Positions 9,924-16,720 of a stretch of 64,000 bases of DNA are shown piece by piece. Position numbers and translations under genes: made by a program. Numbering within the stretch: position 1 is the first letter of the stretch; each line of letters begins with the position of its first letter. Under the pieces are notes generated by a model. It was given only the letters and a program-made list of their open reading frames with translations. It was not told the origin of the DNA and did no database searches. The DNA is from Saccharibacillus sacchari DSM 19268 (GTDB taxonomy: Bacteria; Bacillota; Bacilli; Paenibacillales; Paenibacillaceae), in assembly GCF_000585395.1 (NCBI RefSeq), contig NZ_KK073875.1:2542017-2606016 (forward strand), read 5' to 3'.

Positions 9924-10085
9924 TTTTCCTGCTTGAAGCCGGCTCGGTACGGAAAAAACGAGAATTCGAGTTTAGGCATTTAACGTCCCGGCTCAAAATT
10001 TCATTGTTGCTCATAAGTAAGACTCTTTTGCACGATAAAGTATAAGAGAGCAATCCCTATTAATCACAGCGAGAGGATAACACCT

Positions 10086-12152
10086 ATGAGAAAAAAGAAA
10101 TATTACACCAGCCTGTTGTTGATTGTCGTTCTGCTGTTTTCGCTCCCGCAATATGCATTTGCCATGCAAGTCTTCGTTAAAACACTTACCGGGAAAACGA
10201 TTACTTTAGACGTGGAACCCAGTGATTCGATCGAAATCGTAAAAGCGAAAATACAGGATAAAGAAGGCATACCTCCCGAACGAATGCGGTTGATATTCGC
10301 CGGTAAACAGTTGGAGGACGGGCGCACTTTATCTGATTATAATATTCAAAAAGAATCTACGTTACATTTGGTCGTACGGCAGCCGGAACCGATGGATACC
10401 GCGAGTGCCGAGGCTGCTTCATCGATCGTGGGCGTCGGAGCGGATAATGCGATCACGCTGACGGTAAAGGATTCGGAGGACAACGCGGATACCGCGTTTA
10501 ACGGAGCGTATAACGTGACGATCTCCGGTTATGCGGTTGCACCGAACGGATCGTACGGCAGCTTCAATGGAACAGATTTGACGGAAGGGTCGACTACGGT
10601 CAGCGCGACGTTCGTGAACGGTATAGCCGAACTGAACCTGACGCTGAATAAAGCGGCAGAACAAACCATCACGCTGAGCGTGGAAGGCGTGGCAACGCCG
10701 CAAACGAATACGTTAAATATCACGTCTACGGCGGGAAATACGGCTTCTATGGAACTAACGACCGAACTTGCAGCCCCGACCGTCAACGGCCATGCATTCG
10801 CGAAGCAGCCCGTTATTACGCTGCGCGATGCTTACGGGAATACAAGCGCGGGCGACAACAGTACGGTCGTAACCGTATCGAAAAAGGATACGGGCGCATG
10901 GACGCTGACCGGAACCTTGTCCGCAACCGCGAACGCGGGCGTCGCAACCTTTTCCGATCTTGGCGCTGCGAACGACAAGGGCCTCGCCGGCGTACAGCTC
11001 GCGTTCGATGCTGCGGGGTTAACGCAGGTGACGAGTTGGACGGACCCGTCGGTGTCGCTTCCTTGGCCCGGACTTGGAGCAGCTCCGAATTTGGAATCTA
11101 TTGAAGCGGGTGACGGTCACGTACGGTTGAAGTGGAGCGAAGTACCCGGATCGGTGACCTATTCCGTATATCGGGGAACCACTTCCGGCATCTACGGAGA
11201 AGCCGTCGCTTCAGTAACCGCAGCCGAGTACGATGCCGCCGGACTGACGAACGGTACGACTTATTATTTTATCGTTAAAGCCGTCAATCCGTCCGGAACA
11301 AGCGCATCTTCCAATGAAGTGAAAGCAACGCCGCAGTCGCCGGCTGTTCCGGTGCAGCCTGTACCCGTACAACCGACACCTTCTATACCTGTAGACACAT
11401 CGATTATAACGAAACCGACACCGTCGGTAGTGACACCGCCCGTGGTAACGCCACCCGTAATAGCGCCGCTGCCAACACCGCCACTGCCGGAACCTGTAGC
11501 GGATGTCTTCAAGACAGGCGTTGTGAATACAGGCGAGTTAGTCAAGAAAATGGAATCCCTTGTAGCCGAGGCGAAAGGAACCGACGCGATCATCGATTTT
11601 GCCGACACGCAAGAACACTGGGCGGCAAAGCCGATCCACACGTTTATCCAATTGCAGTTGATTAACGGCTACAAAGACGGAACGTTCAAGCCGAATCATT
11701 CGATCACCCGTGCCGAATTCGCCACGATTCTGAATCGCACATTCGATATTCAAACGGGGAATGCAAATACGTCACTGAAGGATATCGAGGGACATTGGGC
11801 CAAACGAGAGATTGAGAACCTCGTAGCGACAGGCATCATCAAGGGTTACGGCGATGACCGATTCAAGCCGAACCAAACGATTACGCGCGAAGAAATGGTG
11901 GTCATGCTGTCCCGGATCGTCGATCTGGATCACTTGGCGAAGGATCAGGACAAAGGCCGTTTTAATGATCTGAAGGGTTCTTATGCAGCATCCGAGGTCA
12001 TCGCAGGCGCGCAGGCCGGGATCATTCAAGGGAACGGAACCGGAAAGTTCTATCCAAAAAACGGTGCCACGCGTGCAGAAGCCGTGCAAGTCGTCTTGAA
12101 CGTGCTGGAATTTAACCCTCAGTTAAAGACCGCATTGGATTCACTCACTTGA
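10086..12152 (+). CDS. Secreted ubiquitin-SLH surface protein
   Basis: 688 residues. Residues 1-26 are a signal peptide ending AFA. Residues 27-98 are a ubiquitin domain beginning exactly at Met1 of ubiquitin: against human ubiquitin 1-72 I count 64 identities of 72 (changes at 3, 16, 22, 25, 39, 40, 41 and 71). All seven lysines and the Leu8/Ile44/Val70 patch are kept. The tail after Arg72 is QPEP instead of LRGG, so it cannot be conjugated in the normal way. Then come two Ig-like (Big-type) regions (about 105-215 and 218-325), a fibronectin type III domain (about 329-418), a Pro/Thr-rich linker (419-475) and three SLH domains (about 503, 564 and 626 to the end) that bind secondary cell-wall polymer. 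The ribosome site GAGAGGA precedes the ATG. The product should therefore display ubiquitin on the cell surface. A known parallel is the secreted ubiquitin of Bacteroides fragilis; an SLH-anchored version is unknown to me. Confidence 0.95.
10164..10379 (+). other. Ubiquitin-domain coding segment
   Basis: This part encodes ubiquitin residues 1-72 in frame within the SLH protein. It begins with the ATG of ubiquitin Met1 directly after the predicted signal peptidase site and looks AT-richer than the rest of the gene, which would fit acquisition from another source and later fusion. Confidence 0.9.
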
Positions 12153-15244: not shown

Positions 15245-16720
15245 ATGATCGAGGGGATGAAAAAGAAAAGTTTGATTTGGGGAGCGGCGCTTATTGCTGG
15301 CTTGGTGTCTACGGCAACCGTCGATGTACATGCTGGCTTTGCGAAGACGTCTGCTGATTTTACAGACTTGCAGGACTTGGATGCGGCAACGAAAGCCAAA
15401 TTTGATGCGCTGATTTCGGGCGGGATTTTTGAAGGGGTCTCCGATAGCAATTTTGGAGTAAAAGAAAACATGAATCGGGCTCAATTTGCCAAAGTTGCAG
15501 CTCTGATATTTGGTCTCAAAGTCGATAACGATTTGAAGACTTCTTCGTTTAGCGATGTAAAAGCAGATGACGCAGCAAACGGTTATGCTTTGCCTTACAT
15601 CGAAGCGCTTAAAAAATCAGGCATCACCGACGGAGTCGGAGCAGGCGAGTTCAATCCGGCAGGCGAGGTAACCAAGGAACAACTGGCTGCATTTTTGGTA
15701 AAAGGACAAATGAGAAGCATAGATATAGAAGCCAGTACGAGTAAAAGTGAAGACGCTACCGTTTCGGATTGGGCCAAAGGCTATGTGGCTCTTGCTCTTG
15801 AAAAGAAGTTGCTTAACAATGGAAGCGACGGAACGTTTGACGGCAGCTCCAAAGCAAACAGAGAACAGCTAGTGACAGGTGTTTATGAAGCAAAAAAAGA
15901 GAGTACCGAAAATAATCCGTTGGAAGTTACCAAAGCTGAATTTGTAGAGGGAAATAAGTTAAACCTGATCTTGACCGATAAGGTCGATGAAAAATCGATC
16001 GATCTGTCGAAGATTACGGTTGACGGCGTACCTTTGGATCCTGAAAAAGACAGCTACCAATTGTCGGCTGACGGCAAAACGATTATCGTGACCTTGAATG
16101 AAGCCTTTACTTTCAACTTTTCCAAACAGCCCTTGATTAAAGTGGCAGGCTTAAAAACACCTTTCGGGAATGAACTGAAGCAGGAAGAAAATAAAAATAT
16201 CCTGGTCGATATTAAGGCTTCGTCGAATTACGCTGGGGCAGCGGTGCCAAGAGCTGCGGCGGCAGGAGCTGCGGGGGCGGCAGGAGCTGCGGGGGCGGCA
16301 GGAGCTGCGGCGGGATCATTAGTAACAATACCGCTAGGAAGCGCAGTAGCAGTTGGGATCTTTCCAGCAGAACCACCGACGGATCCGAAACCGCCGGTCG
16401 AAGAACCGACGACTCCGCCGACAGGAGGAGGATCAGAAGAGCCGATCGAAGAACCGACGACTCCGCCGACAGGAGGAGGATCGGGAGAGCCGATCGAAGA
16501 ACCGACGACTCCGCCGACAGGAGGAGGATCAGAAGAGCCGATCGAAGAACCGACGACTCCGCCGACAGGAGGAGGATCAGGAGAGCCGATCGAAGAACCG
16601 ACGACTCCGCCGACAGGAGGAGGATCCACAGGTCAACCATATCCGCCTGGAGGTCCACCAAACGATCCATTTTCTAATCCACCATTTATCTTCCCTACAC
16701 CGCTTCCCAAAGCCGATTGA
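15245..16720 (+). CDS. SLH-domain surface protein with low-complexity tail
   Basis: 491 residues. A signal peptide ends near residue 30 (VDVHA). Three SLH domains follow (about 38-85, 97-145 and 160-215; the second carries YIEALKKSGITDGV). Residues about 225-325 look like an Ig-like/SbsA-type domain. A run of Ala-Ala-Gly units follows (DNA 16246-16315), then five 16-residue Pro/Thr/Glu units (see repeat) and a Pro-rich end. SLH domains tether it to the secondary cell-wall polymer. Unlike the ubiquitin protein, the SLH domains are at the N-terminus. The start could also be the ATG at 15257. A -10-like TATAAT lies at 15151. No catalytic domain is seen; the low-complexity tail probably acts as a stalk. 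Confidence 0.85.
   Translation: MIEGMKKKSLIWGAALIAGLVSTATVDVHAGFAKTSADFTDLQDLDAATKAKFDALISGGIFEGVSDSNFGVKENMNRAQFAKVAALIFGLKVDNDLKTSSFSDVKADDAANGYALPYIEALKKSGITDGVGAGEFNPAGEVTKEQLAAFLVKGQMRSIDIEASTSKSEDATVSDWAKGYVALALEKKLLNNGSDGTFDGSSKANREQLVTGVYEAKKESTENNPLEVTKAEFVEGNKLNLILTDKVDEKSIDLSKITVDGVPLDPEKDSYQLSADGKTIIVTLNEAFTFNFSKQPLIKVAGLKTPFGNELKQEENKNILVDIKASSNYAGAAVPRAAAAGAAGAAGAAGAAGAAAGSLVTIPLGSAVAVGIFPAEPPTDPKPPVEEPTTPPTGGGSEEPIEEPTTPPTGGGSGEPIEEPTTPPTGGGSEEPIEEPTTPPTGGGSGEPIEEPTTPPTGGGSTGQPYPPGGPPNDPFSNPPFIFPTPLPKAD
16394..16627 (+). repeat. Five tandem 48-bp repeats, alternating in pairs
   Basis: Units start at 16394, 16442, 16490, 16538 and 16586. Each encodes P(V/I)EEPTTPPTGGGS(E/G)E. 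Units alternate SEE and SGE, so the array also has a 96-bp period, implying that a two-unit block was copied. The last unit is cut short. The near-perfect identity implies recent expansion and a length that can vary. Confidence 0.95.

What the first reader, a model, noticed from the sequence alone, without database searches (positions are those of the whole stretch)
10086..12152. A secreted, cell-wall-anchored bacterial protein with a near-eukaryotic ubiquitin domain
Seen: signal peptide, then a 72-residue domain with about 89 percent identity to human ubiquitin, then Ig-like, FN3 and three SLH domains. Known: bacteria rarely carry such close ubiquitin copies; Bacteroides fragilis secretes one. 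Inferred: horizontal gain from a eukaryote and fusion into an S-layer-type protein, so that ubiquitin is shown on the surface. This could be mimicry toward a plant, fungal or animal host, or toxin-like interference with host or competitor ubiquitin enzymes. I know of no described SLH-anchored ubiquitin.
Basis: partly seen in the sequence, partly recalled or inferred. Interest (0 to 1): 0.96.

Follow-up and report, generated by a model that had tools for sequence, protein, structure and literature searches.

The report
Surface-displayed ubiquitin in soil bacterium
A Saccharibacillus bacterium encodes a surface protein whose outer tip is an almost human copy of ubiquitin, and similar 'ubiquitin-first' exported proteins turn up in many unrelated bacteria, which is unexpected because ubiquitin is known as a tag used inside eukaryotic cells.

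Summary
ORF 10086-12152 (688 aa) is a signal peptide, a 72-residue ubiquitin (64/72 identical to human), a beta-sandwich/FN3 stalk, a Pro-rich linker and three SLH domains. The host is a closed 6.08-Mb genome, by its kin a Saccharibacillus. S. endophyticus has the same gene at the same locus, so a chimera is very unlikely.

It is not a one-off. Thirteen of 394 family genomes carry a ubiquitin protein; all 13 have SLH domains. A scan of 84,980 species genomes found 413 stretches encoding relatives. Of 80 proteins from 76 of the best 80 loci, 65 have a signal-peptide-like start, and in 62 of these a signal-peptidase motif ends exactly before ubiquitin Met1. Anchors differ: autotransporter barrels, SLH, T9SS and CTERM tails. 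In 14 of 15 autotransporters scanned singly, ubiquitin is the only recognised domain before the barrel.

The conjugation tail (LRGG) is lost here. Best reading: a non-conjugatable ubiquitin head shown on the cell surface to bind a partner, eukaryotic or bacterial, unknown. The Ile44 face is intact here but not preferentially conserved across relatives, which weakens general host mimicry. Closest known: secreted BfUbb of Bacteroides fragilis.

The parts
10086..12152 (+). whole gene, 688 aa: signal peptide - ubiquitin - stalk - 3 SLH
10071..10076 (+). likely ribosome-binding site GAGAGG, 9 bases before the ATG
   Evidence: read by eye from the sequence
10086..10163 (+). signal peptide, 26 aa, ending A-F-A directly before ubiquitin Met1
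   Evidence: sequence; hydrophobicity and -3/-1 rule
10164..10379 (+). ubiquitin domain, 72 aa, 64/72 identical to human; tail LRGG replaced by QPEP
   Evidence: AlphaFold block pLDDT 86-91 at residues 31-90
10434..10685 (+). beta-sandwich-like domain (residues 117-200), family unassigned
   Evidence: AlphaFold strands 120-199; no Pfam or PDB sequence match there
10686..11087 (+). residues 201-334, fold unresolved; residues 100-331 as a whole are found in the same 4 of 16 genus genomes as ubiquitin
11088..11327 (+). fibronectin type III domain
11328..11585 (+). Pro-rich linker
   Evidence: sequence; pLDDT under 50 at 420-471
11598..11723 (+). SLH domain 1
   Evidence: genome coordinates converted
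11775..11897 (+). SLH domain 2
11958..12083 (+). SLH domain 3

Best explanation
A surface-display protein whose payload is ubiquitin itself. Sec exports the chain. Signal peptidase cuts directly before ubiquitin Met1, so the folded ubiquitin is the free N-terminal head. The beta-sandwich/FN3/Pro-rich part is a stalk, and three SLH domains hold it on the pyruvylated secondary cell-wall polymer (inferred; a CsaB match is present). Having lost the LRGG tail and being fused on, the head cannot be activated or attached through its C-terminus. It can only bind. Most likely it binds a protein outside the cell: a ubiquitin-recognising protein of a plant, fungus or protist (the Ile44 face is intact in this protein), or, as in BfUbb, a protein of a competing bacterium. 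Shown by sequence: architecture, processing motif, tail loss, constraint, recurrence with other anchors. Inferred: surface exposure, binding, partner.
For: Domain order and processing motif. Constraint: dN/dS of ubiquitin 0.061 against 0.384 (middle) and 0.207 (SLH) for window versus S. endophyticus; 0.062, 0.336, 0.233 versus Saccharibacillus sp. O23. Protein identity persists although few four-fold sites agree (window versus two Cohnella 10/26 and 7/24; versus Ruminococcus albus 3/22). Ubiquitin is the recurring part while anchors change: autotransporter 21/80, SLH 2/80, T9SS tail 2/80, IPTL-CTERM 2/80, SLH 13/13 in the family. In 14 of 15 singly scanned autotransporter fusions no other Pfam family lies between ubiquitin and barrel; linkers 40-134 aa in the 13 measured. 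Three short gammaproteobacterial MAG proteins are only signal peptide, ubiquitin and a tail with a hydrophobic run and basic residues. All nine Ile44-face positions checked are identical to human in the window protein (the list of face positions is recalled). CsaB over cut-off.
Against: In 24 profile-sampled sequences (13 of the family, 11 Verrucomicrobiota) the Ile44 face is 73.6% human-like, other surface 78.7%; 80% of random surface sets score as high: no sign of selection for that face in general. One species of the genus (G014) has lost much of it (F4S, L8S, I44V, H68Q and more), and in its pairs dN/dS of ubiquitin is 0.15-0.22, like that of SLH (0.15-0.21). Only 4 of 16 genus genomes have the gene. 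No cross-phylum partner gene stood out beside it. Export and exposure are predicted only. pTM 0.38: the arrangement of domains is not predicted reliably.
Confidence: 0.45

Rival explanations
1. Stability cap: ubiquitin is kept only as a small, fast-folding, protease-resistant beta-grasp cap at the N-terminus of surface proteins, with no ligand.
For: Core is the best-conserved class (89%) and the Ile44 face is not favoured (classes recalled); G014 keeps a ubiquitin-like sequence with the face lost; ubiquitin is fused to very different proteins.
Against: dN/dS about 0.06 in ubiquitin, 3 to 6 times below the rest of the protein, in the pairs among three of the four genus members; 64/72 identity to human although synonymous sites have turned over; signal peptide plus ubiquitin alone exists as a whole protein (L023, L040, L075, L079), which has nothing to cap.
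Confidence: 0.25
2. Contact-dependent antibacterial factor working like BfUbb: the displayed ubiquitin binds and blocks an envelope protein of competing bacteria.
For: BfUbb has the same anatomy (signal peptide cut exactly before Met1, no terminal Gly) and inhibits other B. fragilis strains while bovine ubiquitin does not (PMC5705921, passages and the Discussion section); Tyr119 of a peptidyl-prolyl isomerase is reported as critical for sensitivity (Jiang et al. as cited in PMC12396204). Sporadic presence within a genus (4/16) fits a competition gene.
Against: BfUbb is 63% identical to human ubiquitin and free (PMC3352274), whereas this one is 89% and anchored; bovine ubiquitin is inactive in that system; no conserved immunity-like neighbour stood out in the comparison of 60 loci.
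Confidence: 0.2
3. Recent eukaryotic contamination or assembly chimera.
For: GC3 of the ubiquitin part is 0.43 against 0.60 in the rest of the gene.
Against: Closed genome; same locus in S. endophyticus; frame without stops in 13 family genomes; Q41M shared by the four Saccharibacillus; ubiquitin GC3 is below the rest of the gene in the four of them.
Confidence: 0.01

Closest known systems
BfUbb, secreted ubiquitin of Bacteroides fragilis (PMC3352274: passages; PMC5705921: passages and Discussion)
   Same: signal peptide cut exactly before ubiquitin Met1; no C-terminal diglycine; secreted; present in some strains only
   Different: free 76-aa protein, 63% identity to human, C-terminal Cys, antibacterial action shown; the window protein is 89% identical, fused to a stalk and SLH anchor, action unknown
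Eukaryotic ubiquitin (PF00240)
   Same: 64/72 residues, all seven lysines, Ile44 face
   Different: no LRGG tail, exported by prediction, one copy in the genome, no conjugation possible through its C-terminus
SLH-anchored surface proteins of Bacillota (for example Sap, SbsB; matches)
   Same: signal peptide, three SLH domains, CsaB in the genome
Secreted ubiquitin-extension effector of the nematode Globodera rostochiensis (as described in PMC5705921)
   Same: signal peptide plus ubiquitin plus extension
   Different: eukaryotic; a 12-aa extension is cleaved off in the plant and acts as effector

Membership tests
Ubiquitin (PF00240) | sequence above the Pfam gathering score and beta-grasp fold | tested here: met
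   100.8 bits against 25.4; confident AlphaFold strands and helix at 27-97 (no fold search of this model was accepted)
Ubiquitin as conjugated modifier | C-terminal LRGG, exposed after processing | tested here: not met
   residues 73-76 are QPEP and run on into the protein
Ubiquitin as conjugated modifier | E1, E2, E3 enzymes in the same organism | not tested
   in the own genome alone only PF00240, SLH and CsaB were searched
BfUbb-type secreted bacterial ubiquitin | signal peptide with cleavage exactly before Met1 | tested here: met
   AFA|MQVF, by a lenient rule
BfUbb-type secreted bacterial ubiquitin | free, unanchored 76-residue product | tested here: not met
   fused to stalk and three SLH domains
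BfUbb-type secreted bacterial ubiquitin | antibacterial activity against relatives | not testable with these tools
   needs purified protein
SLH-anchored surface proteins | signal peptide and SLH domains above gathering score | tested here: met
   142.1 bits against 20.8, three stretches
SLH-anchored surface proteins | CsaB pyruvyl transferase in the genome | tested here: met
   273.5 bits against cut-off 213.1; the control matched 8 of 14 genomes, 4 over the cut-off
SLH-anchored surface proteins | binding to pyruvylated secondary cell-wall polymer | not testable with these tools
   needs a binding assay
Ubiquitin mimic of host recognition | selection preferentially keeps the Ile44 recognition face | tested here: not met
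   73.6% against 78.7% for other surface, 24 sequences, permutation share 0.80; intact in the window protein itself

The most novel reading that the evidence does not exclude
Ubiquitin display is a general, undescribed bacterial surface strategy: one exported ubiquitin module, placed at the mature N-terminus, has spread across phyla and been joined to whatever anchor suits each envelope (SLH, autotransporter barrel, T9SS or CTERM tail), to engage eukaryotic grazers and hosts or rival bacteria.
Probability: 0.3. Interest if true: 0.88.

Novelty: new variant of a known kind. Interest (0 to 1): 0.72.

Why it matters
Ubiquitin is regarded as a eukaryotic, intracellular modifier, and B. [quoted passage not shown] Here near-human ubiquitin is a recurring exported head of surface proteins in several bacterial phyla, with the conjugation tail eroded and the N-terminal junction kept. 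That makes a direct question testable: what outside the cell do bacteria touch with ubiquitin? It also offers many natural, non-conjugatable ubiquitin variants and natural surface-display formats.

Tried and rejected
A contamination or chimera reading was rejected. A tree of 111 ubiquitin domains was too poorly resolved to date or root the transfer: 1 of 108 inner branches starred; one clade for the 13 family members not rejected, p-AU 0.88. From that tree I left out 8 rows by name (later ubiquitin repeats L116b, L114b, L114c; L144a for an indel; L149a, L149b, L121a, L122a as copies), four duplicate loci, and rows under 70 residues. D16 and S22 are common (52 and 54 of 91 in my exported list) but not confined to it (10 and 7 of 18 others), so I do not use them as proof of one origin. 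The Ile44-face test went against host mimicry as a general rule; L144a and L146a were dropped there for indels. No match among 50,697 phage records; 9 IMG/VR contigs encode relatives, several with a signal peptide, not followed further; three plasmid records match, one closely. Promoter and terminator scans gave no more sites than shuffles.

Literature: ten searches. Among the rows listed (capped in three: 20 of 726, 25 of 56, 15 of 297) no title or abstract start describes an SLH- or autotransporter-anchored bacterial ubiquitin; the library holds open-licence papers only, so this is weak evidence of absence. Passages of PMC3482391, PMC12853789 and PMC10892293 were also seen and carry no argument here.

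Full report
What is there. The window holds one open frame, 10086-12152 on the plus strand, 688 aa. Pfam finds ubiquitin at 29-99 (E 3.4e-29), three SLH stretches (E 4.7e-42) and an FN3 domain just under its gathering score (24.4 against 25 bits). FN3 and SLH are backed by solved structures. Ubiquitin is 64/72 identical to human; the eight changes are I3V, E16D, T22S, N25I, D39E, Q40R, Q41M and L71V. All seven lysines and all nine Ile44-face positions that I checked are kept (the list of face positions is recalled). The tail L73-R74-G75-G76 is replaced by QPEP. The 'Ig-like' label is only partly supported: AlphaFold on 13 aligned family members gives beta strands at 120-199 with moderate confidence and no reliable fold at 203-330; ubiquitin (86-91) and SLH (mostly 68-93) are better; overall pTM is 0.38.

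Where it is. The genome is one closed contig of 6.08 Mb, 100% complete, 0.13% contaminated, with a single PF00240 match. The genus is inferred from kin: contig lengths identify G006 with S. endophyticus (L005) and G012 with Saccharibacillus sp. O23 (L009). Four of 16 genus genomes carry the gene, and the middle region 100-331 is found in the same four: the protein comes and goes whole. In S. endophyticus it lies between the same VanZ-like and ABC-F genes (96% and 98% identical). In G013, which lacks it, VanZ-like and ABC-F genes lie next to each other (C7:74768-75709 and 75845-77620), and so they do in O23, with the ubiquitin gene a few kb away. So the locus shows gain, loss or local movement.

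Age and constraint. In the pairs among window, S. endophyticus and O23 the ubiquitin part has the lowest dN/dS of the three large parts: 0.061 (ubiquitin), 0.384 (middle), 0.207 (SLH) for window and S. endophyticus; 0.062, 0.336, 0.233 for window and O23. With G014 it is relaxed (0.206, 0.309, 0.153 against the window), and there much of the recognition face is gone. The four share Q41M, seen in 4 of 93 sequences. Against the eight other family members computed (L101 left out) synonymous differences are high (pS 0.68-0.99) while 49-65 of 72 residues stay identical. Not every cross-genus pair is so far apart: Cohnella OV330 and Conexibacter agree at 16 of 28 four-fold sites. These are 72-codon estimates.

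It is a family. Among genomes of the window's family (Paenibacillaceae by its named kin), 13 of 394, in 4 of 19 genera, have a PF00240 protein. All 13 carry SLH domains, nine a cadherin-like and nine an FN3 domain. In 12 of 13 ubiquitin is N-terminal; in one (L101) it is internal, divergent, in a protein with leucine-rich repeats. In 10 of 13 the signal-peptidase motif ends exactly before Met1; in L104 and L105 it does not, and L101 has none.

It is wider than the family. A scan of 84,980 species genomes gave 413 stretches encoding relatives of the query; the best 80 loci were kept, so this set is biased to high identity. By my reading, 18 of these 80 records are not labelled MAG, among them Dyella, Conexibacter, Ruminococcus albus, Loktanella, Rhodoferax, Cohnella, a Prochlorococcus record and a complete Verrucomicrobia genome, that is five phyla. 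I analysed 80 proteins from 76 of these loci: four loci were left out as duplicates of family genomes, and four gave two proteins. Of the 80, 65 have a signal-peptide-like segment before ubiquitin, and in 62 of these the motif ends exactly before Met1; by shift the motif counts are 62 (0), 10 (-1), 36 (-2), 20 (-3) and 0 downstream (rule: A, G or S at -1 and a small or aliphatic residue at -3). The 15 without it are short, cut or cytosolic and may include mis-binned eukaryotic DNA. In 16 of these genomes searched whole, 15 have one PF00240 match and one has two. Profile searches without identity bias gave 5 of 398 genomes in the window's phylum, of which two (window and G560) are full-length and strong, two are partial and just over the cut-off and one is under it; and 10 of 288 genomes in the phylum of L013 (Verrucomicrobiota by its title), with 13 proteins, 11 with the exact motif. 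So the trait is sporadic, about 0.5-3.5% of genomes in these samples, and broad.

Anchors. Of the 80, Pfam finds an autotransporter barrel in 21, SLH in 2, a T9SS tail in 2 and IPTL-CTERM in 2 (only the 25 most frequent of 65 families were shown). I scanned 15 barrel proteins one by one; in 14 ubiquitin is the only recognised domain before the barrel, L063 having Ig-like repeats. Linkers are 40-134 aa in the 13 measured, some barrel starts being extrapolated from the profile (L012 and L063 not measured). Three short proteins (L048, L058, L065, all MAGs) are signal peptide, ubiquitin and a tail with a hydrophobic run and basic residues; no curated sorting family matched them. Four exported proteins are ubiquitin alone (L023 with LRLRGG, L040, L075, L079). 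Across 93 sequences LRGG is intact in 12, five of them exported. Ubiquitin thus looks like the payload and the anchor like the exchangeable part.

How it most likely works. Export, cleavage before Met1, folding of the ubiquitin head, and SLH anchoring (CsaB match present) place a non-conjugatable ubiquitin at the tip of a stalk. It can bind but not be attached. For the partner there are two live options. A eukaryotic ubiquitin-recognising protein is suggested by the intact Ile44 face here. A bacterial envelope protein is suggested by BfUbb, which shares the exact Met1 junction and the missing diglycine, and inhibits other B. fragilis while bovine ubiquitin does not (PMC5705921: passages and the Discussion; PMC3352274: passages). 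The target work on BfUbb (Jiang et al. 2024) I know only as cited in PMC12396204 (passages). Against general mimicry, the Ile44 face is not preferentially conserved in 24 profile-sampled sequences (73.6% against 78.7%, permutation share 0.80). A pure stability cap remains possible. In a comparison of genes around 60 loci no partner recurs across phyla; one cluster of ABC-type ATPases touches six loci, which I take as a ubiquitous family, and a betaproteobacterial neighbour is told under noticed in passing.

Origin. Transfer from a eukaryote is the natural inference, since ubiquitin is universal there and sporadic here, but the tree is unresolved and no eukaryote panel was used beyond human. 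The exact Met1 junction could mean one ancestral exported ubiquitin that was passed on and re-anchored, or a functional need for a free N-terminus; I cannot separate these.

Novelty. A secreted bacterial ubiquitin is known (BfUbb). An SLH-anchored or autotransporter-displayed one was not seen in the listings of ten searches of an open-licence library (see Tried and rejected). A plasmid copy in R. albus 7 is already annotated 'ubiquitin family protein', so annotation pipelines see these genes. I therefore call it a new variant of a known kind, with the breadth and the exchangeable anchors as the surprising part.

Noticed in passing
L002:212-1186, L008:438-1433, L012:3609-4595, L027:4765-5754, L031:7207-8202, L041:4750-5739, L066:7195-8190: Seven loci of exported ubiquitins (five with a scanned autotransporter barrel, L041 with IPTL-CTERM, L008 not scanned singly) have an adjacent ~330-aa gene in varying orientation. 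Four were scanned: no Pfam family beyond one chance-level match; no PDB sequence match. The AlphaFold model's seven best Foldseek matches are SETD3 and one chain of plastid RNA polymerase complexes (E 1.6e-3 to 0.11, none under 0.001, TM 0.28-0.37); by recall that chain is a SET-domain protein, so this may be a lysine methyltransferase partner. No match in the window.
   Followed up: partly
window 15245-16720 (+): A second SLH protein (491 aa) about 3 kb downstream; the genome has 100 SLH matches listed.
   Followed up: no
L053, L070, L073, L074, L077: Actinomycetota bins have a ubiquitin without signal peptide followed by a partly shared C-terminal region; L053 and L074 have two such genes in tandem. 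No Pfam family beyond ubiquitin-like ones in the four proteins scanned.
   Followed up: partly
L096 (G014) ubiquitin domain: A sister species keeps the gene but its ubiquitin has 25 changes from human, including F4, L8, I44 and H68: a natural loss-of-face variant.
   Followed up: partly
plasmid NC_014824.1:388207-388422; Pseudoalteromonas NZ_CP077771.1 and CP076682.1: R. albus 7 carries the ubiquitin protein on a plasmid; two Pseudoalteromonas replicons have a divergent ubiquitin inside proteins annotated Ig-like or tandem-95.
   Followed up: no
L114-L122: Nine IMG/VR contigs encode ubiquitin relatives; L115, L118 and L120-L122 have a signal-peptide-like start, others look like plain or repeated ubiquitins. 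Whether these are viruses or host DNA was not tested.
   Followed up: no
L018: A Nitrospinota bin contig encodes four ubiquitins in one frame without signal peptide, possibly eukaryotic DNA in the bin.
   Followed up: no
L002 and L008: Bins named cyanobacterium and Bacteroidota share the neighbour gene otherwise seen beside betaproteobacterial loci and may be mis-binned.
   Followed up: no
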